Source of the DNA: Acetobacter suratthaniensis
GTDB taxonomy: Bacteria; Pseudomonadota; Alphaproteobacteria; Acetobacterales; Acetobacteraceae
Direction: 5' to 3'
DNA length: 64,000 nucleotides
NCBI RefSeq assembly: GCF_017377745.1
Contig: NZ_JAFVMG010000006.1
Span: 62,001-126,000 of the forward strand
Each line of letters starts with the position of its first letter. Position 1 is the stretch's first letter. Made by a program: the position numbers and the translations under genes. Below, piece after piece: positions 21,038 through 50,253 of the stretch. The notes beneath the pieces were generated by a model, which saw only the letters and a program-made list of their open reading frames with translations, did not search any database and was not told where the DNA came from.

Positions 21038-21746
21038 CACGGCTCCTGCACCCCGCGTGCCGGATGAAAACAGGATGGAAGACCACGGTCTGGATTTCCT
21101 GCGTTTGCTGTCATGGGTTTCTCCTGCCTTTCCGACCGGGGGTTTTGCTTACAGCCATGCGCTGGAATGGGCAGTAGAACACGGAGATATTACGGCAGTA
21201 GACAGTCTGGTGGACTGGATCAGCGCCCTGCTTACCCACGGTAGCCTGCGTGCGGATATGATTTTTGTTCGCCATGCCTGGCAGGCAGGAGAAGATGTGC
21301 GCCAGTTGGAAGACCTGGCCGCCTATGCTTGCGCCTGTGCATCCTCCCGTGAGCGATATGAAGAAACAGTTTATCAGGGCGAGGCTTTTCTGAAAGCTGC
21401 GGCCGTGTGGGATGATACTGTACTGCAAACGCGCCGTGCAGCAATACGCTGGCCCCTGCCGGTAGCACAGGGTGCGGTTTTCCGGCGCGGGGGCGCACCT
21501 GTCCGGCAGGCCGTGCTGGCTGGGGGGCATATGGCGGTTGCGGCTTTGGTGTCTGCTGCTGTCCGCCTTGTACCACTTGGCCAGACTGATGGCCTGCGTG
21601 CGCAGGTAAAACTGGAAACAGTCATACTGGACGCGCTTAAACAGACAGAACAATGCGGGCTGGATGATGTCGGCACAGCCTGTTTCCGCTCCGATCTGGC
21701 AGCCATGCACCATGAAACACAGGAAACGAGGCTTTTCAGAACATGA
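21027..21746 (+). CDS. ureF: Urease accessory protein UreF
   Basis: UreF acts as the checkpoint for the UreG GTPase during nickel insertion. The roughly 240-residue helical protein contains the family signature [21 protein letters not shown] and a C-terminal helical bundle. The start is uncertain: in-frame candidates are GTG 20997, ATG 21021, ATG 21027 and ATG 21075, none with a strong ribosome binding site. I chose one that overlaps only the end of ureE. The stop overlaps the ureG start in ATGA. Confidence 0.9.
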
Positions 21747-22357
21747 CAAAAGCAAAATACGGCCCGCTTCGGGTGGGCATTGGCGGGCCGGTTGGCACAG
21801 GAAAAACCGCATTGATGGATGCGCTGTGCCGTTATTTCCGCAATGATTACAACATCGCGGCCATAACAAACGACATCTATACGCGAGAGGATGCCGAATT
21901 CCTGACCCGCGCTGGCTCTCTGCCTTCAGAGCGGATCATGGGCATTGAAACCGGCGGCTGTCCGCATACGGCTATCCGTGAAGATGCCAGCATTAATCTG
22001 GCCGGAGTAGCGGAGCTGACGGCCCGTTTTGAAGGGCTGGAACTGATTCTGGTTGAAAGCGGAGGCGATAATCTGGCAGCTACCTTCAGTCCGGAACTGG
22101 CTGATTTAACCATTTATGTCATTGATGTTTCAGCAGGGGATAAAATCCCGCGTAAAGGTGGCCCCGGCATTACCCGTAGCGATCTGCTGGTGATCAACAA
22201 GATTGATCTGGCGCCGCATGTAGGAGCTGATCTCGCTGTTATGGACCGGGATAGCCGCCGTATGCGGGGAGAACGGCCTTTTGTGTTTACCAATATCCGC
22301 GCAGGAGAAGGGGTTGAGGCAATCGCGCGCTTTATTATCGAGCGGGGTGGATTGTAG
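21743..22357 (+). CDS. ureG: Urease accessory GTPase UreG
   Basis: The 204-residue SIMIBI-class GTPase powers nickel delivery to urease. The P-loop GPVGTGKT is at residues 15-22, the metal-binding region is [13 protein letters not shown], and the guanine specificity motif is NKID. The product is full length. It is the last gene of the urease operon; its final 23 bases overlap the 3' end of the opposite-strand metallo-hydrolase gene. Confidence 0.96.
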
Positions 22358-23099
22358 CCACTGGGCAACCTGCCTTGCGTCGTCCATTGATATATTCGGC
22401 GCAAAGCTGGCGGAACCGCACGCCCCCAAAACTGGGGAAATGCCCACCATGCACGATACTGACGGGCATTTTCTCAAGTTTTTCAAGTGTGGAGACGTAA
22501 TCCGGCACAGAGGAATGATAGGTATCATCCAGCAGGGGGCCATCATACACAACATCGCCAGATAGCAAGGTACCGGTCGCCTTTTCCCACAATGCAATGC
22601 CTCCGGGTGAATGGCCGGGTGTGTGCAGGACTTCAAAAACCCGGTTGCCCATATCTATGACATCGCCCTGTTTAAGCAGGCGCGTGGGGGTGACGGCGGT
22701 AATACTGTACTGCTGTGTGTTCCAGCCCTGCGGGCAGGCATCGAACATATCCTCGTTTGCATAGAGTGCAGCCAGAGTATGCTCGCCGTCCGGATTTTGC
22801 AGGATAGGAGCCTCTGCGGCATGAATAGCACAGTGTTCGAACTCATGGTGGCAGCCGATATGATCGAAATGAGCATGGCTGGCCACGCAAAGCACAGGAC
22901 GTTCCGCCAGCATCCGCACATGCTGGCGTAAGGGTACCGCTCCTAAGCCGCTATCAAACAGCAGATCGTAATCGCGCCCACGCACATGCCACATATTACA
23001 ACGGAAAAAGGGCTTGATCCACGGTTCGTGGATTAGCGTTATATCATCGGCATACGGTACGGTCTCATACCATCTGTCATGGGCGATAAAACCTGCCAT
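22335..23099 (-). CDS. Metallo-beta-lactamase-fold hydrolase
   Basis: The 254-residue MBL-fold enzyme has the di-zinc motif HAHFDH at residues 75-80, then HTPGHS, the bridging Asp in [10 protein letters not shown] and a late HGGH. Such enzymes hydrolyse thioesters, lactones, amides or phosphodiesters; nothing here fixes the substrate. It lies 33 bases after the ABC ATPase gene on the same strand and is probably the last gene of the importer operon, so it may act on the imported compound. Its stop lies within ureG on the other strand. Confidence 0.82.
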
Positions 23100-23132
23100 T
23101 GCATCCTCTGGCGTCTGTGGGGGCGGGGAAGT

Positions 23133-24266
23133 CTAGCCTTCCTGTGCGGGTACGATGGTAATATCGTCCACCAGAGCATGGGGTGTTATGGTATCCCCAC
23201 TTGCGGGTACCTGCCGTGCAGGGCTGTGCAGCACAAAGGTCTGGCCTGTTTCTGAGCGCGCAAAAACCCTGACATAATTCCCCTGAAAAACCGTTTCGCA
23301 CACAAGCGCCTGACCTATGGCCTGCCCGTAATCGGGGGTGGTTTTGATATTTTCAGGCCGAATGATTGCAACAGCCTTATCCCCTATACACCAGGTTCGG
23401 CTCTGTGTGTCCGTGTCTGTCATAGCACCTTCAGCGGGAGCGGCCATGCCCCGTAAAAACCCTTGCTGGGTTTCAAGAGTAATGACCTGACCATCCTGCG
23501 CATGAATGCGTCCTTCTATTTGCGTACTTTCACCCATGAATGTAGCGGCAAAACGTGTTGCCGGGCGCATATAAACCCGGCGGGGTGGCCCCATATCCTC
23601 AATGCGACCATGGCTCATGACAACAATCAGATCCGCCAGAGCCATAGCTTCTTCCTGATCATGGGTCACATGAACAAAAGTACGGTTCATCTGCCGCTGG
23701 ATGCGGTGTAGTTCGTCCTGCATCTGGCGGCGCAGGGCCAGATCAAGCGCGCCGAGCGGCTCGTCCAGCAACAGGATTTCCGGTTCTACCGCCAGTGCGC
23801 GCGCCAGAGCCACGCGCTGGCGCTGGCCACCGGACAGCGCTTGTATGCTACGCTCGCCATGCTGGCCAAGCCCGACCAATTCAAGCATTTCCGACACCCG
23901 GACTTTGCGGGCATCCGCTTTCAGACCGCGCAGCTTCAGGCCAAACTCGATATTGGCGGCAACACTCATATGCGGGAACAGTGCATAATCCTGAAAGACC
24001 GTTGTCGTGGGTCTTTTTGCTGGTGGCAGATCGGTTACATCCTGCCCACCAATGCGGATAACGCCTGAACTGGGCAATGTAAAACCACCAATAAGGGATA
24101 GCAGCGTGGTTTTACCACTCCCCGAGGGGCCAAGCAGCACAACATAATTACCGCGTTCCACATGCAGAGAAACAGTCTCCAGCGCGATTTGCCCCGGATA
24201 GTGCTTGGAAACGGCTTCCACAGACAGATGGTTCGTGGAGGCGGAAGAGGGATGTGAAACCGTCAT
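23133..24266 (-). CDS. ABC importer ATPase, spermidine/putrescine (PotA) type
   Basis: This 377-residue nucleotide-binding subunit has Walker A GPSGSGKTT, a Q-loop within VFQDYALFPH, signature LSGGQRQRVALARAL, Walker B ILLLDEPLGALD and the H-loop His in VTHDQEEAMALAD. The C-terminal third is a TOBE-type domain, typical of polyamine and iron importers. Its start abuts the stop of the upstream permease gene. It would energise the two permeases at 24267-25942 with the binding protein at 25935. Polyamine-type ligand specificity is inferred from family only. Confidence 0.9.
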   Translation of the reverse strand: MTVSHPSSASTNHLSVEAVSKHYPGQIALETVSLHVERGNYVVLLGPSGSGKTTLLSLIGGFTLPSSGVIRIGGQDVTDLPPAKRPTTTVFQDYALFPHMSVAANIEFGLKLRGLKADARKVRVSEMLELVGLGQHGERSIQALSGGQRQRVALARALAVEPEILLLDEPLGALDLALRRQMQDELHRIQRQMNRTFVHVTHDQEEAMALADLIVVMSHGRIEDMGPPRRVYMRPATRFAATFMGESTQIEGRIHAQDGQVITLETQQGFLRGMAAPAEGAMTDTDTQSRTWCIGDKAVAIIRPENIKTTPDYGQAIGQALVCETVFQGNYVRVFARSETGQTFVLHSPARQVPASGDTITPHALVDDITIVPAQEG

Positions 24267-25085
24267 TCAGGAACTCTTTTTTCGGAACATGAGATATTCC
24301 GCACCCAACGCAAGGGCGGCGGCACCGAAGAAAACCATGGAACCAATCGCATTGGTTTGCGGGTTCAGACCACCGCGCAGCAGTCCCCAGATGGCGACAG
24401 GTAGGGTAATGTCAAAGCGACTGAGCAGAAAAGCCGTCAGAAACTCATCCCACGACAGGGTAAAACAGAGGATAAAGGCAGCAATCAGGGCAGGGGCCAT
24501 CATCGGCACGGTTATCTGGAGCAACACGCGCGGCAGGGATGCTCCAAGATCAGCCGCCGCCATTTCCATCCGCACCTGCGCGGGGTTGAACTGGGCTGAG
24601 CAGATTGCAAAGGCCAGCGGCATATTGATAACAATATGCGAAATACAGACAAGCCAGAGCGAAGGGGCTATGTTCAGCCACGAGGCCATGACCAGCAGCC
24701 CCATGCCCACAATCAGGTAAGAAACAGCCATAGGCAGCACGAGAATGCCGCGCACAAGCGCCTGACCACGAAAGCGATAGCGCGCCAGACCGTAAGCTGC
24801 CAGAAAGCCCAGCACAACAGACAGAAATGCCGAACCGGCTCCAACAACAAACGAATGCCCCATAGCGGAAAGCAGTCGATCATTAGCAAGTGCCTGCCCG
24901 TACCAATGCAGGGTCGGGCCATGGAAAGGCGGTACGGGCAGGCGGCCATCCTGAAAGGAAAACAGCACAAGAACGGCAACCGGCGCGAAAATGAAGCAAA
25001 AACAGGCGGCGATATACGTCGCTGTTAGTCCTTTGCAGATCAGTTGCTTCCACCCGCCCGCGTAGCGGGTCTGCACGGCGCTCAT
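24267..25085 (-). CDS. ABC importer permease, PotC type
   Basis: The 272-residue inner-membrane permease has about six helices and the EAA loop MEMAAADLGASLPRVLLQITVP, which contacts the ATPase. It pairs with the PotB-type permease encoded directly upstream, overlapping it by four bases, and its own stop abuts the ATPase start. PotC-type subunits transport polyamines or related small cations. Confidence 0.9.
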   Translation of the reverse strand: MSAVQTRYAGGWKQLICKGLTATYIAACFCFIFAPVAVLVLFSFQDGRLPVPPFHGPTLHWYGQALANDRLLSAMGHSFVVGAGSAFLSVVLGFLAAYGLARYRFRGQALVRGILVLPMAVSYLIVGMGLLVMASWLNIAPSLWLVCISHIVINMPLAFAICSAQFNPAQVRMEMAAADLGASLPRVLLQITVPMMAPALIAAFILCFTLSWDEFLTAFLLSRFDITLPVAIWGLLRGGLNPQTNAIGSMVFFGAAALALGAEYLMFRKKSS

Positions 25086-25942
25086 CGTCCGGGCTCCTCT
25101 GGCCTGAGGAAACGGTATAGCGCCAGATACGCCACAGCCATGATAACCGTAAGCACCAGCGACATGGCGGAAGCCATAGGCAGATCAAGATGTTTTTGTA
25201 TCTGCATCATGACGGTCTGGGGCAGTACGATAGCACGCATGCCACCCAGAATCTGGGGGGTAACATAATCGCCTATACACAACACAATGGTCAGGAACGC
25301 TCCAACGGCAATGCCGGGCACGCTGAGCGGCAGTGTTATACTGAGGAAGGTGCGCAAGGCAGACGCTCCCAGATCACGCGCTGCCAACGCCAGCCGTGGG
25401 TTGATCTGCACCAGCGAGGCATAGATTGTCAGTGTGTCGAGCATGATGAAAAAATGCACGAACCCGATTTCAGTCGCCGTTGTGCTGTACGCCAGCCTGA
25501 GCGGCGTATGGATAAGCCCCAAAGCCATAAGTGCCGCATTGAGTGGCCCTGTAGGCGCAAGAACCAGAAGCCATGCGTATGAACGCACGACGTAGGATGT
25601 CCAGAACGGCAGCACGGCAAAGGTCAGGGCAAGGCGCTGTATTCTCGCCGAGCGGAGAGAGGCAATGGAGTAAGCCAGCGGATAGGCCAGAACAAGGCTT
25701 GCCAGTGTCACAACGGCTGTGAGTGTCAGGGAGTTGAACAGCGCATCCGTGTAGGCTTTTTCAGTAAAAACCTGAACGAAATTACCAATCCCGTATTGCC
25801 CGGTTGCGCTATCATGCAGGCTCACCGCAATCATCGCCAGTAAGGGGGCGGCAAAGAACGCCAGCAGCCATAACAGGGCAGGGGAGACGAACAGGAGGCC
25901 CGGAAGGCTCTCCCGTCGTGACACGGTGGCGACCTTATTCAT
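25082..25942 (-). CDS. ABC importer permease, PotB type
   Basis: A roughly 286-residue permease whose domain begins at MNKVATVSRRESLPG and continues with about six helices. The EAA-type loop is ALAARDLGASALRTFLSITLP. I place the start at ATG 25942, which overlaps the binding-protein stop by eight bases. The open frame extends further upstream to 26233 but that stretch is antisense-like and lies inside the binding-protein gene. It forms the membrane channel with the PotC-type partner. Confidence 0.88.
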   Translation of the reverse strand: MNKVATVSRRESLPGLLFVSPALLWLLAFFAAPLLAMIAVSLHDSATGQYGIGNFVQVFTEKAYTDALFNSLTLTAVVTLASLVLAYPLAYSIASLRSARIQRLALTFAVLPFWTSYVVRSYAWLLVLAPTGPLNAALMALGLIHTPLRLAYSTTATEIGFVHFFIMLDTLTIYASLVQINPRLALAARDLGASALRTFLSITLPLSVPGIAVGAFLTIVLCIGDYVTPQILGGMRAIVLPQTVMMQIQKHLDLPMASAMSLVLTVIMAVAYLALYRFLRPEEPGR

Positions 25943-26999
25943 TCTGCATGACTTCCGTCCAGAGTTTCTGGAGCGTTTTATCAAAAGCGGGGGTAAGCTG
26001 AGGATAGGTGGCGGTGCGGGCAATATAAGCTGGTTGCTGCGCCCATTGCAGAATGGCCTTGTCTGCATCGTTGAGAACCGCTTTGCGGTTGGCGGGCATG
26101 CCCCAGTAACAGCTTGAAGTTGCCAGTTTGGCTTGTGCCGCAGGCGTGAGAATATACTTGGCAAAAGCCGTTGCCAGATCCTTATGACTGGATGCCGCAA
26201 AAACAGCGATCCCCTGCTGCCAGCGAATGCCACCCTGCTCAGGCACGAGGTAGGCCAGATCGGGCCGGTCCTTATGCATGCCAGCGGTTACCCACTCACC
26301 CCCGCCGACCAGAATATCCACCTGTCCGGTAGCCAGCGCCTGCTGTGTGGTTGTGATGTCACCCACAAGAGCCGCATTATGTCGCAAGGCTGCAAGCTTG
26401 TCGCGCAAGGCTGGTAAATCGGCATCGGTCAGGTGTTCGGGGTCTTTACCCAGCGCTTGGGCCGCATAGGCGATAATCGGCACATAGTAATCATAAATGG
26501 CAACCCGGTCTTTGTATTCAGCGCTCCACGGGGCCTGAATATTGCTAAGGGCAGGCGCTTTTATATGGGCTGAATCATAAGCCACGGCGTTGTAGCCGAA
26601 TTTTTCCGGCACAGAATACATCTTGCCGTTCACAACATTCAGCGCGGGGTTACTCACCCCCTCGAACAGATCCGTCATGGGAAAGTCTGCCGGGTCAAGT
26701 GCTGCGAGCAATCCCATGTCAGCCAGTCGGCCAGTATCGGTTTCATCGAGCACCAGCACGTCCCAGTCTCCGGGGTGAGACTGCTGGATAACGGCCAAAG
26801 CTGCCCCGGTACTATCAATGTCCTTGTAGTGAACCTTGACGTTATGGGCTTTTTCAAACGGTTCAAGCAGGGCGGGATCTTCATGGTCGCACCATGTCAG
26901 AACATTCAGGGCGCCTGTTTCAGCGCGCGCGCCCGTTCCCCATCCGGAAAGAAACGTGCAGGCAACAAGGAGGGGCAGGCCGATACGGTAACGGGTCAT
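25935..26999 (-). CDS. ABC importer periplasmic binding protein, PotD-like
   Basis: The roughly 354-residue extracellular solute-binding protein has a signal peptide (RIGLPLLVACTFLSGWGTGARA) followed by LNVLTWCDHEDPALLEPFEKA, typical of the polyamine-binding group. The body has the expected two-lobe length. ATG 26999 follows GGAG at about nine bases, while an in-frame start at 27131 would bury the signal peptide. It is the first gene of the importer operon and diverges from the LysR gene. The ligand could be a polyamine, agmatine or another guanidino compound. Confidence 0.87.
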   Translation of the reverse strand: MTRYRIGLPLLVACTFLSGWGTGARAETGALNVLTWCDHEDPALLEPFEKAHNVKVHYKDIDSTGAALAVIQQSHPGDWDVLVLDETDTGRLADMGLLAALDPADFPMTDLFEGVSNPALNVVNGKMYSVPEKFGYNAVAYDSAHIKAPALSNIQAPWSAEYKDRVAIYDYYVPIIAYAAQALGKDPEHLTDADLPALRDKLAALRHNAALVGDITTTQQALATGQVDILVGGGEWVTAGMHKDRPDLAYLVPEQGGIRWQQGIAVFAASSHKDLATAFAKYILTPAAQAKLATSSCYWGMPANRKAVLNDADKAILQWAQQPAYIARTATYPQLTPAFDKTLQKLWTEVMQNE

Positions 27000-27422
27000 G
27001 GTACGGTTTCTCCGCTCGGAACGATCACGATACATTTGCGGGCATCTGACACGGTGTCCAGCCACACCCTCCATAGGCGTTCCACAAAAGAAACGATCTG
27101 GCGTGTGGTGCCCCGGTCGAAGCTGATACAACGATAAGCGTGGGAGGACGGTTTTTTGAATGCTGTTCTTGCGATCTTTGCATCAAGGTTTATAGATGTT
27201 TTATGCGGGCCTGACTTCAGGGGGAATTAAACCGCTCCACCACTCTCACACCATGATGGAATAACAAGAAAAAATCGTGTGATAACCACGCTTGTCGGCA
27301 CTTTTCCTGACAGCTTTCATATGCCTGAGAGGACATGCTATAAACAGGGCACGAGAAGATCGTTTCGGAGGTGTTTGGTTGTGAGAATGGTTACATTGAT
27401 TTTTATCAAAGCGGCCTGAACC
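27000..27422. other. Intergenic region between the importer operon and the LysR gene
   Basis: This is the only gene-free stretch longer than 300 bases. It should hold divergent promoters for the ABC operon (leftward) and the LysR gene (rightward). A perfect FNR-type dyad lies at 27396-27409. I saw no convincing open frame, no strong terminator hairpin, and no recognisable guanidine, glycine or other riboswitch core. Confidence 0.6.
27396..27409. promoter_or_regulatory. FNR/CRP-FNR-type binding site (TTGAT-N4-ATCAA)
   Basis: TTGAT TTTT ATCAA is a perfect match to the FNR/FixK consensus half-sites with the correct four-base spacer. It ends 13 bases before the LysR start codon, a position more consistent with repression or with control of a promoter just upstream than with classical activation at -41.5. 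Function is inferred from the motif only. Confidence 0.55.
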
Positions 27423-28355
27423 ATGCTGGGCACACTGAGCGACCTTGATCTAAGGCTCATCCGGGTTTTTCTGGCGATTGTGGATGCGGGCGGTATTTCC
27501 GTAGCGCAGGGTAGCCTTAATGTTGGTCAGTCCACGATCAGCACCCAGTTAGCCACACTTGAAACACGGCTTGGTTTCAGGCTGTGCGAAAGAGGCCGTG
27601 GAGGCTTCAGGCTGACAGCCAAAGGGCTGCGGTTTGCTGAGCTTGCCCGCACCCTTGTCGGGGCGGTGGAAGATTTCAGCATGCAGGCCCGCAACATGGA
27701 CCGCAAACTGGTGGGTGCGCTGAGGATTGGTATGATCGGGCATACACCTTTCAGCGAAAACAGCCGGATCAGCCATGCGATTGCGCGGTTTCGGCAGCGC
27801 GATGAAGCTGTACGCCTTTTTATAAAAGTCTGTTCACCCAGCGCCATGGAGGAACAACTCCTGAGTGGCGAGCTGGATATTGCTGTCGGGTATTTCTGGC
27901 ACAGAACCGCCAGCCTGCATTTTACCCCTCTGTTTCTGGAACGGCAGGTAGCCTATTGCGGCCAGCAGCACCCATTGTTTGCTCTTGCAGGGGAAGTTTC
28001 TGTAACTCAGGCATGGGATTATGACTGGGCCTGGCGTAGCTACCCCTTACCTGAAACCGTTTTTCCAACGCAGCCCCGCCATATTACGGCCGTTGCTGAT
28101 AATATGGAGGCATTGGCCATGTTGGTGTTATCGGGGCACCATCTGGCTTTTTTACCGCAACATTTTGCTTTGCCTTACTGCCGCCAGGGACTGATGGCGC
28201 CTCTTAACCAGCAGGCATTGCATTATGAGGTCACGTTCCATGTCGTAACACGACAGCGCCAGCACGTGAGCGAAATCGCCCGTGCTTTTCTGGCGGATCT
28301 GGCCGCTGTTCATCTGGATATACCAGAAGGCGGTAAGGCTGAAGGTCTGGGGTGA
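27423..28355 (+). CDS. LysR-family transcriptional regulator
   Basis: This 310-residue LTTR has an N-terminal winged helix-turn-helix (FLAIVDAGGISVAQ...QSTISTQLATLETRLG, about residues 15-60) and a C-terminal periplasmic-binding-like effector domain. It lies between the divergent polyamine-type importer operon and the ureohydrolase gene, and so is a likely regulator of both. In Pseudomonas a LysR gene neighbours guanidinobutyrase in a comparable layout (family knowledge). The effector may be a guanidino compound. A perfect FNR-type box sits just before the start. Confidence 0.88.
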   Translation: MLGTLSDLDLRLIRVFLAIVDAGGISVAQGSLNVGQSTISTQLATLETRLGFRLCERGRGGFRLTAKGLRFAELARTLVGAVEDFSMQARNMDRKLVGALRIGMIGHTPFSENSRISHAIARFRQRDEAVRLFIKVCSPSAMEEQLLSGELDIAVGYFWHRTASLHFTPLFLERQVAYCGQQHPLFALAGEVSVTQAWDYDWAWRSYPLPETVFPTQPRHITAVADNMEALAMLVLSGHHLAFLPQHFALPYCRQGLMAPLNQQALHYEVTFHVVTRQRQHVSEIARAFLADLAAVHLDIPEGGKAEGLG

Positions 28356-28509
28356 GAGCAGTTGCCCGGATGCAGCAGGCCGTGATTAGGTCAATGAACA
28401 TCAAACTAAACGTTCTGACTGAGCAATTTTTCCAGACAGGTATCTATGGTCTATTGGGCTACCCCTCTTGTGGAGCGCGCCAAGCTCCAGCCTGACAAGG
28501 AAAAGCCCC

Positions 28510-29565
28510 ATGAGCACCGAAAAACTTGATGCCCTGCGTAAAAAATATGGCGGTGCCGCCGGAGAAACAGTGCACACCCCCGAGTTTCGTGCTGTAGCGG
28601 AAGGGCAGTTTTCCGCCGGGGCCAGTCGGGCTAAACCTTATTCCGGCGTGCCAACCTTTATGGGGTTGCCCTATCAGCCTGAAGTAACCCCCGACACACT
28701 CTCCGCTCTCGATATTGCGGTGGTTGGTGTTCCCATGGATCTGGGGGTAACCAACCGTTCAGGCGCACGTTTTGGCCCGCGGGCAGTACGCAGCATCGAA
28801 CGTATCGGTCCGTATAATCATGTGCTGCATCGCCAGCCCGCAGCCCTGTGCCGTGCTGCCGATATTGGGGATGTACCGTTCCGCAGCCGTTTCAGCCTTG
28901 AGCAGTCTCATGAGGACATTCAGGCCTTTTATCATGTGCTGACAAAGGCAGGGGTTATCCCTCTTTCTGTTGGTGGCGATCACTCCATCAGCTATTCCAT
29001 TCTCAAGGCACTGGGGGCTGAACGCCCCGTCGGCATGGTGCATTTTGATGCCCATTGCGATACCGGCGGCAATTATGAAGGAGCAAAGTTCCATCATGGT
29101 GGCCCATTCCGGCACGCGGTGCTGGAAGGTGTGCTTGACCCCACACGCTGTGTGCAGATCGGCATCCGGGGGGCTTCGGAATATCTGTGGGAGTTTTCAA
29201 AAGACTCCGGCATGACGGTTATTCATGGCGAACAGGTGCCCCATCTGGGAGCCGCCGCCATTATTGAAACCGTTCGGCGCGTGGTGGGCGATGGGCCGGT
29301 TTACATCACGTTCGATGTGGACTGTCTGGATCCGGCTTTTGCTCCAGGCACCGGCACACCCGAAATTGGTGGCCTAACCACCCGGGAAGCACTGGAAATC
29401 CTGCGCGGGCTTGATGGGCTGAATGTGGTGGGAGGCGATGTGGTAGAGGTTGCGCCACAATACGATTCAACCACCAATACGGCCCATGCCGCAGCGCAGA
29501 TCCTGTTTGAGATTTTCTGCCTCAGTGCTGGACGGATTGCAGCAAACAGAGAAAGCAAGACCTAA
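28510..29565 (+). CDS. Ureohydrolase, agmatinase/guanidinobutyrase family
   Basis: The 351-residue arginase-fold enzyme hydrolyses a guanidino compound to urea plus an amine. The di-manganese ligands are all present: GGDHS, HFDAHCDTG, and DVDCLDPAFAPGTGTPE. ATG 28510 follows AAGGAA at eight bases. It is about 40 residues longer than E. coli agmatinase, mainly at the N-terminus. Agmatine, 4-guanidinobutyrate, 3-guanidinopropionate or free guanidine are all possible substrates. Urea made here could feed the urease encoded 6-10 kb upstream. Confidence 0.87.
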   Translation: MSTEKLDALRKKYGGAAGETVHTPEFRAVAEGQFSAGASRAKPYSGVPTFMGLPYQPEVTPDTLSALDIAVVGVPMDLGVTNRSGARFGPRAVRSIERIGPYNHVLHRQPAALCRAADIGDVPFRSRFSLEQSHEDIQAFYHVLTKAGVIPLSVGGDHSISYSILKALGAERPVGMVHFDAHCDTGGNYEGAKFHHGGPFRHAVLEGVLDPTRCVQIGIRGASEYLWEFSKDSGMTVIHGEQVPHLGAAAIIETVRRVVGDGPVYITFDVDCLDPAFAPGTGTPEIGGLTTREALEILRGLDGLNVVGGDVVEVAPQYDSTTNTAHAAAQILFEIFCLSAGRIAANRESKT

Positions 29566-43360: not shown

Positions 43361-44368
43361 TTACTCCTGCACCTGCAAAACCCCCTGATTGACCGCACTT
43401 GGAATACTGGGCCAGAAAGTCTCGGCAATGGCGTTCTGTGTGCTGGCGAGGCGGGTCTGTATCCAACTCATGTAATCATGTAATCCACGCAGGATAATAT
43501 CACCTGCTGTCTGATCGCTCAGGGTTGTGCGGAGTTCATCCAGGCATTCCTGCAGCGGGGCACATAACCCGTACAGTCCTGCATGGTTGGCCAATAAGCT
43601 CAACACATCATCAATCTGCCGCAGATTGGACGAAAGGGAGCGCGGAAAACCTTCGTTCTTGAGAAGAAAACCAACAATATTGGCGGGCGTCACCGTAACT
43701 GGCCGCAAGCGGCGGAAGGAATGATGCGCCGCAGCAGAGCGCAGAACAGAGGTCCACTGCGTGATATCAATGGCTGATCCCGGCACTTCTCCTTGTGGTA
43801 GCAGCATATGGTACCGGATATCGACCAGACGGGTAATCTGATCGCAGCGTTCAAGATGTTTGCCAAGTCGGTAGAACAGCCACGCCTGATCGCGATACAG
43901 CGTGCCTTCAGCAATACCATAATGGGTCTGGCATTCCTGTCGTATGCGCCCACACAGGCCGGACAGACTGCTGGTTTTGACCGATGTTTCGTCCAGTTCC
44001 AGCAGCCAGCGTGTGAAAACGTTCAGATGTGTCCATAACTCGGTAGAAACCAGCGGCCTAACAGCACGAGCGTTTTCACGAATGGCATGCGCCATAGACC
44101 GAATGGAACCGGGGTTTTCTGCTTCGATCAGGTAAAAAGGCACGGCATCAGCACTTGAGCCATCAGGGTGCAGGCGGCTGAACAGGCTTTCATCCGAATT
44201 GATGCTTACGATGGAATCCCATGCGGTCTGCCCTTCGGCATCACGCACAAAGGTTTCCGTCACTTCCAGCAGTCGGGCCAGATTTTCTACCCGCTCCATG
44301 TAACGGGCGAGCCACATCATGCACTCAGCATAACGGGATAAAAGGGGAAAATGCGCCAGTTCCATCAT
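43361..44368 (-). CDS. Alpha-E domain protein
   Basis: The 335-residue all-helical alpha-E protein has the family start LSRYAECMMWLARYMERVENLARLLE and later YRDQAWLFYRLGKHLERCDQITRLVDIRY. It has no recognised catalytic residues. In many bacteria alpha-E genes are paired with circularly permuted ATP-grasp ligases, as here: its ATG overlaps the ligase stop in ATGA. The pair has been predicted to build or attach a peptide, but its product is unknown. It is the downstream gene of the pair, ending near the hairpin at 43290. Confidence 0.87.
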   Translation of the reverse strand: MMELAHFPLLSRYAECMMWLARYMERVENLARLLEVTETFVRDAEGQTAWDSIVSINSDESLFSRLHPDGSSADAVPFYLIEAENPGSIRSMAHAIRENARAVRPLVSTELWTHLNVFTRWLLELDETSVKTSSLSGLCGRIRQECQTHYGIAEGTLYRDQAWLFYRLGKHLERCDQITRLVDIRYHMLLPQGEVPGSAIDITQWTSVLRSAAAHHSFRRLRPVTVTPANIVGFLLKNEGFPRSLSSNLRQIDDVLSLLANHAGLYGLCAPLQECLDELRTTLSDQTAGDIILRGLHDYMSWIQTRLASTQNAIAETFWPSIPSAVNQGVLQVQE

Positions 44369-45843
44369 GATGCCATGACCCATGTATCTTTAGACCCGCC
44401 ACCCTGAGAGGAATTGACCACAAGAGACCCTTTGCGCAGGGCCACGCGGGACAACCCGCCGGGCAGCACCCAGACTGATCGCCCTGTCAGGGCGAAAGGT
44501 CGCAGATCAACATGACGCGCCTCAACACCATCGGGGCAGAGGGTGGGTGTTACGGACAGGCCGATAACCGGCTGGCTGATATAATTGGCAGGGTCCTGTT
44601 GCAGTTTCTGCCGAAATTCCTCCAGTTCGGCCTTGCTGGCCTGCGGGCCGATCAACAGGCCGTAACCACCAGACTCTCCAACAGGTTTAACTACCAGCTT
44701 GTCCAGATTAGCCAGAGTATAGGCCAGTCCTTCCTCTTCTGCGCAGATATGGGTTTGCACACTGTCCAGAATGGGGTCTTCGTCCAGATAGTAGCGAATG
44801 ATACGCGGCATATAGGCGTAAACAGCTTTGTCATCCGCCACACCGGTACCAAGGGCGTTAGCCAGTGTCACGTTGCCATACCTGTAAGCGTCAATCAGCC
44901 CCGGAACCCCCAGAAGACTATCGGGGTTGAAAGCAAGCGGATCAAGAAACTCATCATTAAGACGACGGTAAATGGAATGAACCGGCTTCGGCCCCATCGT
45001 GGTACGCATATAGACACGATGGTTTTCCACGAACAGGTCGCGGCCTTCAACCAGCGGCACCCCCATCTCGCGCGAGAGGAAAACATGCTCGAAATAAGCG
45101 GAGTTGTAGATACCCGGTGAAAGCAGAACGACCTGCGGATTGAGAACACCTTCGGGCGCCACTTCACACAGGGTCTGATGCAGGCGCGGGCCATACTCCT
45201 CAACCGAGCGAACTGGCAGGCCTGATGCCAGGTCAGGCATGAGCCTGAGCATCATATGGCGATTTTCAATCACATAGGAAACGCCCGAGGGCGTGCGGGC
45301 ATTATCTTCCAGAATGAGAAAACGTCCATCCATATCGCGGATAAGGTCTGTGCCGTTTACATGCACATACACACCACCCGGCACCTTGAAGCCCACCATA
45401 GCCTCGCAGTAATTCGGATTATTCAACACCAGCTCGGCAGGAATAATGCCGTCTTTAAGGATTTTCCGGTCATGATAGATGTCGTGCAGGAAGAGGTTAA
45501 GCGCTTGAATGCGCTGCTGCACGCCGCGCTCGATATGTGACCATTCCTGTGCTGTCATGATCCGCGGAATGGCATCAAACGGCAGAATACGGTCTATGGC
45601 CTCGCGGTTGGAATAGACAGTAAAGGTTATGCCCATGCTGTAAAGCTGCGCCTCGGCCGAGGCCGTGCGTTTGCGCAGCTCCGCCACATCCATCGCGGCA
45701 AGCCTGCTGCGAACACGATTGAGGGCTTCAGGCATGGGGCCTTTACGGTTCATGAGTTCGCAGAAAAACTCAGGAACCTGATATCCATCCAGCAGGCCGG
45801 TTGGCGATGTTTCGGACAGAGTATGCGGCTTGGCACTACTCAT
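44365..45843 (-). CDS. Circularly permuted ATP-grasp ligase
   Basis: The 492-residue protein of the CP_ATPgrasp group (former DUF404/DUF407) would activate a carboxylate with ATP and join it to an amine. Recognisable segments are ILEDNARTPSGVSYVIENR, the metal-binding LVVKPVGESGGYGLLIG near the C-terminus, and VALRKGSLVVNSSQGGGSKDTWV at the end. ATG 45843 follows GGGAGG. It is divergent from the transglutaminase-like gene across 269 bases and overlaps the alpha-E gene. The substrate is not known; a peptide or amino-acid ligation is predicted by family. Confidence 0.88.
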   Translation of the reverse strand: MSSAKPHTLSETSPTGLLDGYQVPEFFCELMNRKGPMPEALNRVRSRLAAMDVAELRKRTASAEAQLYSMGITFTVYSNREAIDRILPFDAIPRIMTAQEWSHIERGVQQRIQALNLFLHDIYHDRKILKDGIIPAELVLNNPNYCEAMVGFKVPGGVYVHVNGTDLIRDMDGRFLILEDNARTPSGVSYVIENRHMMLRLMPDLASGLPVRSVEEYGPRLHQTLCEVAPEGVLNPQVVLLSPGIYNSAYFEHVFLSREMGVPLVEGRDLFVENHRVYMRTTMGPKPVHSIYRRLNDEFLDPLAFNPDSLLGVPGLIDAYRYGNVTLANALGTGVADDKAVYAYMPRIIRYYLDEDPILDSVQTHICAEEEGLAYTLANLDKLVVKPVGESGGYGLLIGPQASKAELEEFRQKLQQDPANYISQPVIGLSVTPTLCPDGVEARHVDLRPFALTGRSVWVLPGGLSRVALRKGSLVVNSSQGGGSKDTWVMAS

Positions 45844-46112
45844 GGGGCCTCCCGTCTGAACGGTCTGGCGTCAGGTGCCCGGATCAGGGGAGCGGGCCAC
45901 GCCAGATTGTTGCGATCTGTTACTGACGGGAGCAGGAATTCCCGTCTTTGCCAAGAGGAAAAAACGAAAGACTTTTTTTATTCGTCCAGCACGGAGTAAC
46001 GCTTGCGCGCGCTTTTGATGCTGATATGGTTTTGACCTTGAAATCCGTCATACATGACAGGCGGCCCCGGGGCCGGGCCGCCATCAAAGGTGAAAGAGTA
46101 GGCCGCTTTCTG

Positions 46113-46952
46113 ATGAGTTCCCAGATAACGCTGGTACACCGGACGTGTTACCGTTACGACAGGCCGGTTGTCATGGGGCCGCAGACAGTCCGCTTGCGCC
46201 CCATGAAAGACTGCCGCACACCTGTATTGTCCTACACGCTCAAGGTAGAGCCCGCAGGGGCTGAACTGGGCTGGGGGCAGGATGATAACGGCAATGAAAC
46301 TGCCTTTATCCGCTTTGATGAAAAAGTGACCCATTTCAATGTCGAAGTCAGCCTCGTCGCTGACATGAGGGTGTACGACCCCCTGCGATTGACTGACGAA
46401 AGCCCCCTCTGCACGCAAGACTGTGATACGGCCTGCCGGAGCCAACCTCAATTGGGGGAGCATGCCACAACCTTTATCAACGATTTACACGCTCTGTTGC
46501 CAGAAGACCCCGCCCGGAAGTTTATCAAGCTGAACGAAGTGATTGCCCGGCGGGTACGTTATGAACGCCGCATGGAGCCGGGAGTTCTTTCAGCCGAGGA
46601 CGTATTGAGCCGTAATTGTGGCTCCTGCCGGGATAGCGCGTGGCTTATGGTGCTGCTGGCACGTCATATGGGCTTTGCTGCACGTTTTGTCTCTGGCTAT
46701 CTGGTGCAAAGCCTGCATGGTGCCGGAGACGAGGAAGTTCTGAACGGAGACCTGCACGCATGGGCTCAAGTTCTGCTGCCTGAACATGGCTGGCTGGGAT
46801 TTGATACAACTTCAGGCAGGCTGGCAGGGGAGGGGCATATTCCACTTGCCGTAGCTGCGGAACCAGAAGGGGCTGCCCCCATTTCGGGTCTACTGGATCG
46901 ATGCGAGTCCTGTTTTAATGTTTCCATGCAGGTTCAGCGTCTGTTTTCATGA
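46113..46952 (+). CDS. Transglutaminase-like cysteine protease/amidase family protein
   Basis: This 279-residue protein has an N-terminal beta domain (TLVHRTCYRYDRPVVMGPQTVRLRP) and a transglutaminase core. The catalytic Cys is in NCGSCRDSAW, His in DLHAWAQVLLPEHGW and Asp in the following GFDTTSG. Bacterial members mostly hydrolyse amide or peptide bonds instead of crosslinking. It has no signal peptide. Start ATG 46113 is chosen at the beginning of the conserved domain; an in-frame ATG at 45948 adds non-family sequence. It overlaps the peptidase gene in ATGA. Confidence 0.85.
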   Translation: MSSQITLVHRTCYRYDRPVVMGPQTVRLRPMKDCRTPVLSYTLKVEPAGAELGWGQDDNGNETAFIRFDEKVTHFNVEVSLVADMRVYDPLRLTDESPLCTQDCDTACRSQPQLGEHATTFINDLHALLPEDPARKFIKLNEVIARRVRYERRMEPGVLSAEDVLSRNCGSCRDSAWLMVLLARHMGFAARFVSGYLVQSLHGAGDEEVLNGDLHAWAQVLLPEHGWLGFDTTSGRLAGEGHIPLAVAAEPEGAAPISGLLDRCESCFNVSMQVQRLFS

Positions 46953-48049
46953 AAAAATTCTCGTGCCAGTCCTGCGGGCAATTGCTGTTTTTTGAAAACA
47001 CCCGTTGCGAGCGGTGTGGGGCAACGCTCGGGTTTGTGCCCGAAACCGCCCGTCTCTCTGCCTTACAGGCCGGGGCGGATGGAGTATGGTTCCCGCTGGA
47101 TAGCGAGGCGACTAGCGTGGATGGGCAGACCATCGCACGGCGCTTCTGCGCCAATCACGCCCATCATGTCTGTAACTGGCTTTTGCCTGCCGAGGATGTT
47201 GAAACAGTTTTCTGTTTTGCCTGCCAGTTCAACAGAATCATCCCCAATTTGGATATGCCGGGCAATCAGGAACGCTGGTACAGGCTGGAAGTCGCCAAAC
47301 ACCGGCTGTTTTACACAATCCTGCGGTTAAACCTGCCTGTTTACACGCGCAGGGAAAGGCCAGAAACAGGTCTTGTCTTCGATTTTCTTGATGATCCACC
47401 AGACGGTTCAACCTCGATCATGACCGGACATGCGAATGGTGTCATCACCATCGCCACCAAGGAGGCAGATGACGCCTACCGGGAAGGCATGAGGGTTGAG
47501 CTGGGTGAATATTACCGCACTCTGCTAGGGCATTTCAGGCACGAAATCGGGCATTATTACTGGGGTCTGCTGATACGCGATGGCGGGTGGCTGGAAGACT
47601 GCCGAGCAATTTTCGGGGATGACCGGCAGGATTATCAAGCAGCTCTTGCTGCCTACTACCACCGGCCAGAGTCCGCTCACTGGCGGGAATCCTTTGTCAG
47701 CCTTTATGCGACTTCGCATCCATGGGAAGATTTTGCCGAAACATGGGCGCATTATTTCCACATCGTCTCAACGCTGGAAACAGCACTCGCCTATGATGTG
47801 TCAGTCAGTGCAGATATGGGTGGTGCTGCGCTGACAGGCCATGCTGGCGATCCCTACACACGAATGTCGTTCGACGAAATCATTAATGCCTGGGTGCCTC
47901 TGGCCTCGGTTGTCAACGCACTCAACCGTTCCATGGGGTTGCCGGATTTTTATCCTTTTGTGCTGACACAGGGCGTGCGGGCAAAGCTGGCCTTTATCCA
48001 TAAGGTCATCCGCGACACGCAGGAAAAGCAGCGCACACACCCCGTATAA
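46949..48049 (+). CDS. Zinc-ribbon metallopeptidase (putative zinc-binding peptidase)
   Basis: The 366-residue cytosolic protein starts with a zinc ribbon (CQSCGQ...CERCG, residues 6-23). A second Cys/His cluster follows (FCANHAHHVCN, CFACQ), and then a zincin motif HEIGHYYW with His at about residues 198 and 202. Downstream SLYATSHPWEDFAETWAHYFH may supply the third ligand. Members of this family commonly neighbour transglutaminase and ATP-grasp genes. It is translationally coupled to the transglutaminase-like gene. The substrate is unknown. Confidence 0.85.
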   Translation: MKKFSCQSCGQLLFFENTRCERCGATLGFVPETARLSALQAGADGVWFPLDSEATSVDGQTIARRFCANHAHHVCNWLLPAEDVETVFCFACQFNRIIPNLDMPGNQERWYRLEVAKHRLFYTILRLNLPVYTRRERPETGLVFDFLDDPPDGSTSIMTGHANGVITIATKEADDAYREGMRVELGEYYRTLLGHFRHEIGHYYWGLLIRDGGWLEDCRAIFGDDRQDYQAALAAYYHRPESAHWRESFVSLYATSHPWEDFAETWAHYFHIVSTLETALAYDVSVSADMGGAALTGHAGDPYTRMSFDEIINAWVPLASVVNALNRSMGLPDFYPFVLTQGVRAKLAFIHKVIRDTQEKQRTHPV

Positions 48050-48080: not shown

Positions 48081-49055
48081 TCAGCGGCTCGGGCGAATCC
48101 GTGGATCAAGCGCCATGTGCAGGACATCAACCAGCGCATTGGCAACCACCACGAAGGTAGCCGAATACATGACTGTTGCCATAATCAACGGCAGGTCCAT
48201 ATTGCTCAGGGCTTGATAAGTCAGGTGGCCAACGCCGGGCAGGCCGAACACCACTTCAGTCATAAGCGCACCACCCCCGGCAAGCTGTGCAAAATCCATG
48301 CCGAACAACGCGGTATAACCAATCAGCGCCATACGAAGGCTATGTCGCAGCATGATCCGCGAGGGGGATAACCCTTTGGCGCGTGCCGTACGAATAAAAT
48401 CTTCATGCGAAAGGGCAATCAGGTCGGCCCGCAGAACGCGGCTATATATGCCAGTAAAGGCCAGAGCCAGCACGCACCACGGAATGACAAGCGATAAAAA
48501 CCACCCCAATGGGTTTTGTGTAAGCGGAATATAACCCGGCGGCGGCACCCATGCGAACCACCAGCGGTCATGATAGCGGCTTTGGGTGAGCATGTTCATG
48601 ACTTCACCCAGCCAGAAAACGGGAATGGAAATCCCCACCATGCCCAGAGCCATGATCATACGATCAATCATGCGCCCTTTCATGGCTGCGGCCAGAGTGC
48701 CAGCCAGTAGCGACGTAGCAATCCAGATCACGGCAGCCCCACAGACCAGTGAAGCCGTTACAGGGGCCGCATGTAAAATTTCAGGCACAACATGTTCGCC
48801 CCGATTGGCATAGGAGGCCAGATCCCGGGTGATGAAGAGCTTCTTCATCATGATACCGTACTGAACGGGCAGGGAGCGGTCGAAACCATACTCCTTGCGG
48901 ATTGTTTCCATCACCTGCGGCGATGCCCCCCGTCCGGCAATACGCGCCGTTGGGTCCATCCCCGGCGTTGCGAAAAAAACACCGAATACCATGGCAGAAA
49001 TGCCAAACAGAACAAACAGGGTCTGAGCCATACGGGAGAGAAAAGCGCGCAGCAT
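48081..49055 (-). CDS. Dipeptide/oligopeptide-type ABC permease, DppB-like
   Basis: The 324-residue permease has the typical first helix (TLFVLFGISAMVFGVFF), a long periplasmic stretch, and about six helices with the EAA-type loop FIRTARAKGLSPSRIMLRHSL. DppB-type subunits import peptides, nickel or sugars. It starts eight bases after the DppC-like gene. No binding protein or ATPase gene is nearby, so it must use distant partners or be part of a split system. It converges with the zinc peptidase gene. Confidence 0.87.
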   Translation of the reverse strand: MLRAFLSRMAQTLFVLFGISAMVFGVFFATPGMDPTARIAGRGASPQVMETIRKEYGFDRSLPVQYGIMMKKLFITRDLASYANRGEHVVPEILHAAPVTASLVCGAAVIWIATSLLAGTLAAAMKGRMIDRMIMALGMVGISIPVFWLGEVMNMLTQSRYHDRWWFAWVPPPGYIPLTQNPLGWFLSLVIPWCVLALAFTGIYSRVLRADLIALSHEDFIRTARAKGLSPSRIMLRHSLRMALIGYTALFGMDFAQLAGGGALMTEVVFGLPGVGHLTYQALSNMDLPLIMATVMYSATFVVVANALVDVLHMALDPRIRPSR

Positions 49056-49063
49056 GATCTGGC

Positions 49064-50077
49064 CTATGGCTCCCGTCCCGCGCTGCGCGGGTCAAGGTGG
49101 TCGCGCAAAGAATCCCCCAGAATGTTCAGGCAGAGCACTACGGCGGCAATCGCCAGCCCCGGTGCTATGGCAACCACGGGACGGGTATAGATCAGGCCTT
49201 CCCCATCCTGAATCATGGTGCCCCATGATGAGGCCGGTGCCTGCACCCCAATGGACAGAAAGGACAGGGCGCTTTCCGTCAGCAGCGCCATGGCCATAAC
49301 CAGTGGCCCGAGCACGACCAGCGTATCACTGACATTGGGCAGAATATCAAACAGCACAATACGCCAGCGCGGCACCCCCAGACAGCGTGCTGCCGTTACG
49401 AATTCAGCAGTTTTCAGGCTCATGACCCGCGCACGGACTGGCCTGGCCGCATAAGGCATGTAAACCAGCGCGATAATCATGACAGGCACAAGAAGGCTGT
49501 TACCTTCAAGCGTAAACGGCCCAAGATGCAGGCCCGTTGTAATGGTGACGATCGAAAGGCAGATAGCAAAAAGATAAACCGGCACAGCCCACATAATGTC
49601 CATCAGCCGGGAAAGCACACTATCCACTACCCCCCCCATAAACCCGGCCACCACACCAATAAGCGTGGCAAAAACCAGACACAACGTAGCGGAAGCCGAA
49701 GCAATCAGCAGGGAGTTACGACCGCCATAGAGTAGCCGGGCCGCAATGTCGCGCCCCTGACTATCCGCCCCCAGCAGATAGTGGGTATGCCACGTAGGCC
49801 CAATAGGACTAAGCCCCAGATGCAGCGGGTTATCATTAGGCTGCATCAGATCAACTTCCTGCCCATCAAGCATAATACTGCCCGCAACATTGGCGCTGAA
49901 CGGATCTGTATGCGCGATACGTGCAGCATAAAATGGCGCCATAAGGCAGGACAGAACGATCAGGAGCAGGCAAAGCCACGCAAACCGGGCCGTGTTATCG
50001 CGGGCCAGCCCTATCAGGGCTGTTTTCCACGGGCCGGATGAGTCAAGGCGTTCTGGCTGGGTAGAGGATGTATTCAT
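49064..50077 (-). CDS. Dipeptide/oligopeptide-type ABC permease, DppC-like
   Basis: The roughly 337-residue permease has a cytoplasmic N-terminus, a first helix (FAWLCLLLIVLSCLMAPFYAA), the family segment HYLLGADSQGRDIAARLLYGGRNSLL, and the EAA loop EFVTAARCLGVPRWRIVLFDILP. ATG 50077 has GGGG just upstream; ATG 50089 in the same frame is an alternative. It is the first gene of a two-permease unit with the DppB-like gene and has no local ATPase or binding protein. Confidence 0.87.
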   Translation of the reverse strand: MNTSSTQPERLDSSGPWKTALIGLARDNTARFAWLCLLLIVLSCLMAPFYAARIAHTDPFSANVAGSIMLDGQEVDLMQPNDNPLHLGLSPIGPTWHTHYLLGADSQGRDIAARLLYGGRNSLLIASASATLCLVFATLIGVVAGFMGGVVDSVLSRLMDIMWAVPVYLFAICLSIVTITTGLHLGPFTLEGNSLLVPVMIIALVYMPYAARPVRARVMSLKTAEFVTAARCLGVPRWRIVLFDILPNVSDTLVVLGPLVMAMALLTESALSFLSIGVQAPASSWGTMIQDGEGLIYTRPVVAIAPGLAIAAVVLCLNILGDSLRDHLDPRSAGREP

Positions 50078-50253
50078 TAACCCCGACATAAAAGACAGTC
50101 ATTACACCCCACAGGATGCGGGCTGGCGTCAGTTTTGACAACTCCACATAAAAAACACCCTACCGGGCTTTTCACAAAACTATCACCTCATACTCATCAG
50201 GTATTGGATAGAGTGTGCGCACGCTCGCAATAAATACAAAGAGAGGCAGGGCC

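What the first reader, a model, noticed from the sequence alone, without database searches (positions are those of the whole stretch)
43361..48049. Divergent ATP-grasp/alpha-E and transglutaminase/zinc-peptidase pairs: an uncharacterised peptide-ligation system
Seen: two tightly coupled pairs (each overlapping in ATGA) diverge from one 269-base region. One pair is a circularly permuted ATP-grasp ligase and an alpha-E protein; the other is a transglutaminase-like protein and a metallopeptidase with an N-terminal zinc ribbon and HEIGH motif. Known: such families co-occur in bacteria and comparative genomics has proposed that they synthesise and trim a peptide or tag; no substrate or product is established as far as I know. 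Inference: the ligase builds an amide bond, and the two hydrolases remove or process the product, all in the cytosol since none has a signal peptide. The Anbu proteasome-like gene often found with them is not in this window.
Basis: partly seen in the sequence, partly recalled or inferred. Interest (0 to 1): 0.75.

Follow-up and report, generated by a model that had tools for sequence, protein, structure and literature searches.

The report
Nitrogen-stress amide ligase with swapped hydrolases
Four linked bacterial genes appear to build and break an unknown amide bond; relatives of this system are switched on by nitrogen shortage in some bacteria, and here a zinc peptidase sits where a proteasome-like enzyme is often found.

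Summary
In detail: alpha-E and circularly permuted ATP-grasp genes diverge from transglutaminase-like and zinc-ribbon metallopeptidase (Peptidase_Mx, "Mx") genes across 269 bp, each pair overlapping in ATGA. It is a real unit. In seven other acetic-acid-bacterial loci the block recurs (in Gluconobacter morbifer without the transglutaminase), while none of nine tested flanking window genes follows it. Ligase, alpha-E and transglutaminase occur in 81, 82 and 81 of 100 family genomes, missing from the same 19 apart from one alpha-E fragment. Mx is an optional partner: 28 of 29 Mx genomes in a 200-genome phylum draw carry the ligase, and ligase and transglutaminase genes are its commonest neighbours, also in Bacteroidota. 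Anbu, beside 34 of 60 phylum ligases, was not found in this genome. Across the phylum the ligase often has sigma-54-type promoters (22 of 60 against 2.25 expected), matching published nitrogen-starvation induction; the window lacks one and shares a conserved TTGGCAA element instead. Best reading: a make-and-hydrolyse amide cycle with a fixed ligase/alpha-E core and exchangeable hydrolases, a new variant of the known ATP-grasp/alpha-E/transglutaminase system. Substrate and product remain unknown. Alpha-E proves to be an internal duplication.

The parts
43361..44383 (-). Alpha-E protein (likely start at the ATGA overlap, M6 of the longest ORF); all-helical, internally duplicated
   Evidence: Pfam Alpha-E 4.9e-76; model pLDDT 87.5; halves align with probability 97%, E 6.3e-11
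44365..45843 (-). Circularly permuted ATP-grasp ligase
   Evidence: Pfam 1.8e-160; PDB 3n6x E 8.8e-168; E179, N181, K386, D446 invariant in 34 of 34 aligned sequences
45844..46112 (.). Divergent regulatory region, no sigma-54-type site
   Evidence: 269 bp; best sigma-54 match has 5 mismatches
45948..45954 (.). Conserved TTGCCAA (TTGGCAA towards the ligase) element
   Evidence: At -83 to -119 of the ATP-grasp ORF start in 7 of 7 loci of this type with an unbroken ligase ORF; aligned block; control 36 of 1693 other ORFs have it anywhere in 350 bp; window place
46113..46952 (+). Transglutaminase-like cysteine hydrolase/transamidase
   Evidence: Pfam 3.3e-22 and 3.4e-18; Cys and Asp of the triad in 18 of 18, His in 15 of 18 aligned sequences
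46949..48049 (+). Peptidase_Mx: double zinc ribbon plus zincin-type metallopeptidase
   Evidence: Pfam 1.8e-103; model pLDDT 91.9; nearest fold 4l7a E 3.8e-4; HExxH in 110 of 111 Mx ORFs examined

Best explanation
The locus is a cytosolic amide make-and-break module. The ATP-grasp ligase, working as one enzyme with alpha-E, activates a carboxylate as acyl-phosphate and joins it to an amine. The transglutaminase-like cysteine enzyme and the Mx zinc peptidase then hydrolyse or trim the product, or supply the ligase with cut peptides. Ligase plus alpha-E is the fixed core; transglutaminase, Mx and Anbu are an exchangeable set of hydrolases around it. In many Pseudomonadota the module belongs to the sigma-54 nitrogen-limitation response; this acetic-acid-bacterial lineage has no Anbu and no sigma-54 site, has Mx in the block, and runs it from a divergent region with its own conserved element. 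Shown here: homologies, intact residues, co-occurrence, linkage, variable hydrolase set, promoter signature in relatives. Shown by others: a Yersinia homologue of the ligase releases phosphate from ATP; nitrogen induction in Pseudomonas putida and NtrC dependence in Burkholderia cenocepacia. Inferred: amide-bond formation in vivo, what the hydrolases act on, the direction of the evolutionary changes, and any nitrogen role in this host.
For: Co-occurrence: ATP-grasp 81, alpha-E 82, TGase 81 of 100 family genomes, absent from the same 19 except one alpha-E fragment in G097. Ligase and alpha-E also occur as one fused polypeptide. Block conserved without flanks in 7 other loci. Mx: 28 of 29 Mx genomes hold the ligase against 88 of 171 others, Fisher 9e-7, uncorrected for phylogeny; in at least 10 of these 29 Mx lies within about 10 kb of a ligase gene, read from positions. 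Among 80 named Mx loci the commonest neighbour clusters are ATP-grasp (18), TGase (16), long TGase (12); the next has 9, eight of them Bradyrhizobium. Hydrolase exchange: Mx clusters without transglutaminase in Gluconobacter morbifer and G200 (no Bact_transglu_N hit in the genome) and G284 (one hit under the cut-off, elsewhere). Sigma-54-type sites: 22 of 60 phylum ligases against 2.25 expected; 14 of 59 in the family against 3.05. Published: PP_2685 and PP_2688 up 4.44 and 3.99 log2 on nitrate versus ammonium (PMC8050072); NtrC-dependent cluster in B. cenocepacia (PMC5491218); a predicted RpoN site before a CP_ATPgrasp gene in Bradyrhizobium (PMC13207237); phosphate release by the Yersinia ATP-grasp (PMC6376114).
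Against: No substrate or product is known. The Yersinia study saw no specific interaction among the operon proteins and no Anbu peptidase activity. Mx is optional: 40 of 81 ligase-bearing family genomes gave no Mx hit, and in 59 of 80 named loci no full-length partner lies in the fetched stretch. In 30 of 60 fetched family loci none of TGase, Mx or Anbu lies within 5 kb of the short ligase, so the hydrolases are then elsewhere. G184 keeps an HExxH-bearing Mx of a divergent subclass without the ligase. The window itself has no sigma-54 site, although its genome has a divergent rpoN, so nitrogen control here is untested. Related genomes are not independent samples.
Confidence: 0.5

Rival explanations
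1. A nitrogen-salvage route: the transglutaminase-like enzyme and Mx break down cytosolic peptides or amides to release ammonia and amino acids, and the ligase makes a small conjugate that stores or activates them; no tagging of proteins.
For: Nitrogen-starvation induction together with urease and urea-transport genes in P. putida, NtrC dependence, association with urea domains in marine metagenomes (PMC3597751), sigma-54 signature in relatives. The idea that the transglutaminase generates ammonia from degraded protein is also raised in PMC6376114.
Against: Does not explain why an ATP-consuming ligase and alpha-E are the constant part while the hydrolases vary. The window lacks the sigma-54 site.
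Confidence: 0.22
2. Synthesis of a specialised small molecule, such as a modified peptide or a glutathionylspermidine-like amide, with the hydrolases as maturation enzymes.
For: The only PDB relative found by sequence, 3n6x, was deposited as a putative glutathionylspermidine synthase.
Against: No GSP_synth match at E up to 1. Presence in 81 of 100 family and 116 of 200 phylum genomes is broader than usual for specialised metabolites. No other neighbour family recurs widely beside Mx, but only ORFs of 80 residues or more were clustered, only clusters in five or more loci were shown, and the unlabelled ones were not annotated, so a short precursor gene would be missed.
Confidence: 0.13
3. Two unrelated gene pairs that happen to lie back to back.
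For: In many genomes Mx and TGase lie elsewhere than the ligase.
Against: Same divergent block in different surroundings in several genera with a shared element in the gap; Mx-ligase linkage in Hymenobacter and Ferruginibacter.
Confidence: 0.04

Closest known systems
Anbu operon (ATP-grasp, alpha-E, transglutaminase-like, Anbu; proposed peptide-tagging system, Iyer et al. 2009, known here only through passages of PMC6376114 and PMC5666114)
   Same: Same ligase, alpha-E and transglutaminase-like families; ligase and alpha-E adjacent; published nitrogen induction of homologues
   Different: Anbu not found in the window or genome; Mx present; transglutaminase on the divergent strand with Mx; no sigma-54 site
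Long-form system (long transglutaminase protein, fused ATP-grasp/alpha-E, short transglutaminase; the name DUF2126 for the long protein's C-terminal part is recalled)
   Same: Same domains; Mx is also found beside it
   Different: The window genome has one PF14403 match, the short separate ATP-grasp
3n6x, ATP-grasp of solved structure
   Same: Homologue over nearly the whole length, E 8.8e-168
   Different: Its name 'putative glutathionylspermidine synthase' is not backed by a GSP_synth match of the window protein
4l7a, putative zinc-binding metallo-peptidase of Bacteroides caccae
   Same: Nearest fold of the Mx model, E 3.8e-4; a zincin fold for DUF2248 (PF10005) had been predicted before (PMC3650047, passages)
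   Different: Low overall overlap (TM-score 0.27 by query); Pfam Peptidase_Mx1 matches the window protein only below its cut-off, 17.4 against 25.6 bits; the window protein carries an N-terminal eight-cysteine double zinc ribbon

Membership tests
ATP-grasp/alpha-E/transglutaminase system (short form) | Circularly permuted ATP-grasp with intact conserved residues | tested here: met
ATP-grasp/alpha-E/transglutaminase system (short form) | Alpha-E gene directly after the ligase | tested here: met
   Overlapping genes; alpha-E within 5 kb of the short ligase in 60 of 60 fetched phylum loci
ATP-grasp/alpha-E/transglutaminase system (short form) | Transglutaminase-like protein with Cys-His-Asp | tested here: met
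Anbu operon | Anbu gene in the operon | tested here: not met
   No Anbu profile hit in the genome; one PF00227 hit, on another contig
Anbu operon | Sigma-54-type site before the ligase (frequent, 22 of 60, not universal) | tested here: not met
   Best match in the window gap has 5 mismatches; regulation itself not testable here
Anbu operon / peptide-tagging system | Formation of a peptide or protein conjugate | not testable with these tools
   Needs biochemistry
Peptidase_Mx (PF15887) | Score over the curated cut-off, HExxH and downstream conserved Glu | tested here: met
   345.5 against 27 bits; motifs
Glutathionylspermidine synthase | GSP_synth domain | tested here: not met
   Only CP_ATPgrasp_1 and _2 match at E up to 1
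Known fold class for alpha-E | Clear structural match in the PDB | tested here: inconclusive

The most novel reading that the evidence does not exclude
A constant ligase/alpha-E enzyme makes one amide conjugate under nitrogen stress across bacteria, and three unrelated hydrolase folds (transglutaminase-like cysteine enzyme, Mx zincin, Anbu Ntn-hydrolase) are functionally interchangeable removers of it. In acetic acid bacteria the zinc peptidase has taken over from the proteasome ancestor Anbu, and in Gluconobacter morbifer from the transglutaminase too, leaving ligase, alpha-E and Mx as the smallest working cycle.
Probability: 0.28. Interest if true: 0.75.

Novelty: new variant of a known kind. 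Interest (0 to 1): 0.5.

Why it matters
The ATP-grasp/alpha-E system is widespread (116 of 200 genomes of the phylum draw), and no substrate is named in the passages read here. Tying Mx to it gives a third hydrolase, one that occurs without Anbu and even without the transglutaminase. That offers a three-gene version (Gluconobacter morbifer) for biochemistry. The sigma-54 signature in relatives says when to look for the product: under nitrogen limitation. The internal duplication of alpha-E gives a first structural handle on a protein without a clear fold match.

Tried and rejected
Sigma-54 site in the window: none (best 5 mismatches); the loose pattern scan of the whole window gave no more matches than chance (280 against 292 expected). 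A first sigma-54 count anchored on the longest ORF start gave 7 of 65 with at most 2 mismatches against 3.4% before other ORFs; the count anchored on the profile start is the one used, and both are told. Sigma-54 sites before Mx: 6 of 107 (5.6%) with at most 2 mismatches against the same 3.4%, so Mx itself is not claimed to be sigma-54 controlled.

Simple Anbu/Mx exclusion at genome level: rejected. 9 of the 14 Anbu genomes in the family also have Mx, two phylum clusters hold both (L175, L176), and Paracoccus chinensis and the Ferruginibacter genome with linked Mx each have an Anbu hit. The exchange claim is limited to the clusters listed.

Decay of Mx without its partners: in the family the one Mx in a genome without the other three (G021, L085) has lost HExxH, the only such case of 111 Mx ORFs. 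But G184, without the ligase, keeps the motif in a divergent Mx subclass, so this is suggestive only.

Alpha-E fold: VIA matches are ordinary helical-bundle scores, so no function is read from them. Weak Mx matches to lethal-factor-type zincins are taken as fold class only. A sigma-70 consensus scan listed no site in the gap.

Literature: PMC3268129 (Iyer 2009) is not held, so it may already list the metallopeptidase. A search for COG4307, DUF2248, Peptidase_Mx, COG2307, COG2308, COG3484 gave 5 papers; I read passages of three, found by term, and saw no statement linking Mx to this system; the other two were seen in the listing only. A search for four Mycobacterium locus tags (recalled names) gave one paper, listing only. 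Other searches. No paper was read whole.
Full report
OBSERVATION. Both pairs overlap in ATGA, and the gap between the two start codons is 269 bp. The transglutaminase start at 46113 is preferred over an in-frame TTG at 45948, because the similarity to relatives begins there. The family is Acetobacteraceae by inference: the named loci Acidomonas methanolica L121 and Roseomonas rosea L100 lie on contigs of the same lengths (216753 and 270870) as contigs of family genomes G037 and G003. The genus of the window is not told, and the phylum name Pseudomonadota follows from the family.

IS IT A UNIT? In 100 genomes of the family (the window's own included) ATP-grasp is found in 81, alpha-E in 82, the transglutaminase N-domain in 81. 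The 19 genomes without ATP-grasp are the 19 without transglutaminase; 18 of them lack alpha-E and the last, G097, has only a 69-residue alpha-E fragment match. Peptidase_Mx is found in 42 of 100: 39 long matches, all in genomes with the ligase; short fragments in G022 and G067; and a divergent one in G021, which has none of the other three. Counting all 42 (41 with the ligase), the Fisher test gives 1.9e-4, uncorrected for relatedness.

The divergent order [alpha-E, ATP-grasp] against [transglutaminase, Mx] recurs in G030, G060, G073 and G085, in Komagataeibacter europaeus L096, and in Acetobacter persici L094, where draft ORFs are frameshifted. In Gluconobacter morbifer L095 it recurs without the transglutaminase, and no transglutaminase N-domain was found in that genome. 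In these seven loci the block genes match the window (ligase 74-85% identity) while none of nine tested flanking window genes does, within the fetched stretches. A 7-bp element, TTGGCAA read towards the ligase, lies 83 to 119 bp before the ATP-grasp ORF in 7 of 7 loci of this type with an unbroken ligase ORF (L014, which is the window's own copy, L015-L018, L095, L096). Of the other 58 ligases examined 2 have it, further upstream. As control, 36 of 1693 other ORFs have it, in either orientation, within 350 bp upstream, and 4 of these 1693 have it in the same orientation at 60 to 130 bp; in the eight loci of this type the control is 1 of 61. The alignment of the gap shows the same block in L094 too.

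THE METALLOPEPTIDASE AS PARTNER. Clustering the neighbouring ORFs (80 residues or more) by similarity, the commonest neighbour families were ATP-grasp (18 of 80 loci), transglutaminase (16) and the long transglutaminase form (12); the next family (9) comes from eight Bradyrhizobium loci and one Methylobacterium. By profile, 21 of 80 loci have at least one partner ORF in the fetched stretch, plus one with a 100-residue transglutaminase piece; these include Acetobacteraceae, Methylopila, Methylorubrum, Bradyrhizobium, Paraburkholderia, Luteimonas, Paracoccus chinensis (two Mx-ATP-grasp-alpha-E copies in tandem), Hymenobacter and Ferruginibacter. In a 200-genome draw from the phylum, 29 have Mx and 116 the ligase (113 over its cut-off); 28 of the 29 have both, G184 being the exception (Fisher 9e-7; I take the two calls to have drawn the same 200 genomes, as the listed handles agree). 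Reading positions in those lists, Mx lies within about 10 kb of a ligase gene in 10 of the 29 (G000, G127, G148, G193, G200, G241, G249, G260, G265, G284); the ligase list was truncated, so this is a lower bound. Mx is therefore a real but optional partner.

HYDROLASE EXCHANGE. Around 60 short ligases of the phylum draw (one from each of 60 of the 116 genomes with a match, mostly taken from the upper part of the hit list), alpha-E is present in 60, transglutaminase in 45, Anbu in 34, Mx in 3 within 5 kb (ten of the 45 transglutaminase cases also have the long form nearby, to which the gene may belong). In 60 fetched family loci the figures are alpha-E 60, transglutaminase 20, Anbu 10, Mx 7, and in 30 none of the three hydrolases is within 5 kb. 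G284 and G200 have Mx and Anbu but no nearby transglutaminase; a genome search found none in G200 and only one hit under the cut-off in G284. In the family, Anbu occurs in 14 of 100 genomes, in 12 of these beside the short ligase by position. The window clade has transglutaminase plus Mx and no Anbu hit. Both Hymenobacter genomes have no Anbu hit, while Paracoccus chinensis and the Ferruginibacter genome do. Ligase and alpha-E stay together and the hydrolases vary. This is what an enzyme with replaceable product hydrolases would give, but it is an inference.

REGULATION. Within 350 bp upstream of the short ligase, sites with at most two mismatches to the sigma-54 consensus (GG and GC kept) occur in 22 of 60 phylum loci against 2.25 expected from dinucleotide shuffles (5 of 60 on the reverse strand, 4.2% before 672 other ORFs), and in 14 of 59 family loci against 3.05 (3 of 59 on the reverse strand). 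With at most one mismatch the figures are 11 against 0.10 and 8 against 0.40. The six usable named loci had none. All 14 family sites lie in genomes with an rpoN hit; the four examined ligase genomes without one (G013, G022, G030, G073) have no site, which is too few for a test. The window has no site although its genome keeps a divergent rpoN (E 3.3e-48), and its same-genus relative G030 has no rpoN hit. This fits published data, of which I read passages only: in P. putida the Anbu gene PP_2685 and the ATP-grasp gene PP_2688 rise 4.44 and 3.99 log2 on nitrate compared with ammonium and their promoters were tried as nitrogen sensors (PMC8050072); in B. cenocepacia the cluster I35_5080-83 depends on sigma-54 and NtrC (PMC5491218); a table of predicted RpoN sites in Bradyrhizobium lists a CP_ATPgrasp_1 gene (PMC13207237); a sigma-54 regulon survey lists COG3484 (PMC12316311); marine metagenome correlation groups these domains with urea metabolism (PMC3597751). 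Against: PMC5666114 cites work in which expression of the operon proteins did not change under various other conditions.

THE PROTEINS. ATP-grasp matches 3n6x over nearly its whole length, and E179, N181, K386 and D446 are invariant in 34 of 34 aligned sequences. That these are metal and ATP residues is recalled from ATP-grasp enzymes, not tested on a structure. The Yersinia homologue releases phosphate from ATP; no specific interaction of the operon proteins and no Anbu peptidase activity were seen (PMC6376114, passages). Alpha-E has no convincing PDB relative by sequence, and a confident model (pLDDT 87.5) gives no clear fold match. Its residues 17-97 align with residues about 165-253 of the aligned sequence (26% identity, probability 97%, E 6.3e-11), so it is an internal duplication, each half opening with a helix that carries an ER motif. 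No search was made for whether this duplication is already known. Mx is an eight-cysteine double zinc ribbon followed by a zincin (pLDDT 91.9; nearest fold 4l7a); a zincin fold for this family had been predicted (PMC3650047, passages). Of 111 Mx ORFs examined, 110 keep HExxH; the exception is G021's, in the family genome without the partners. G184, also without the ligase, keeps it in a divergent subclass.

MECHANISM AND VERDICT. Most likely the ligase with alpha-E forms an amide through an acyl-phosphate, and the transglutaminase-like enzyme and Mx hydrolyse or trim it, in the cytosol, as part of a response that in relatives answers nitrogen shortage. The chemistry follows from the families; the nitrogen role is shown only in relatives; the substrate is unknown. 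The locus is not an Anbu operon, since that defining gene was sought and not found; it is a new variant of the ATP-grasp/alpha-E/transglutaminase system. Whether Iyer et al. 2009 already noted the metallopeptidase could not be checked.

Noticed in passing
17372-29565: Urease cluster (ureD by Pfam, other ure genes by reading), an ABC transporter with solute-binding protein, a LysR regulator and an arginase-family enzyme lie together, as if feeding a guanidino compound or urea to ammonia.
   Followed up: partly
48081-50089: Two ABC permease genes of peptide-transporter look (by eye) without an ATPase or binding-protein gene beside them, convergent with Mx; not found beside the block in seven relatives.
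   Followed up: partly
L094:3321-8240: Acetobacter persici draft: alpha-E, ATP-grasp and transglutaminase are each split by frame changes while Mx is whole; decay or draft error cannot be told.
   Followed up: no
L095:7480-7997: Gluconobacter morbifer has no transglutaminase between ligase and Mx but keeps the TTGGCAA element.
   Followed up: yes
L085:6828-7838: Mx of G021, a genome without the partner genes, has lost its HExxH motif.
   Followed up: partly
L033 (G022:C4:125506-125652): Short Mx remnant with a stop codon lies beside the ligase, suggesting recent loss of Mx.
   Followed up: no
L143:1116-11600: Paracoccus chinensis has two tandem copies of Mx-ATP-grasp-alpha-E.
   Followed up: no
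L019, L021, L025: An alanine/serine-rich ORF of about 270 residues stands divergent from the ligase in G025, G048 and G037, followed by a PLP-decarboxylase-like ORF (named by eye); G079 has ORFs of like size in the same places.
   Followed up: no
G000:C45:42175-42633: rpoN of the window genome is divergent (E 3.3e-48), and none was found in the same-genus genome G030.
   Followed up: partly
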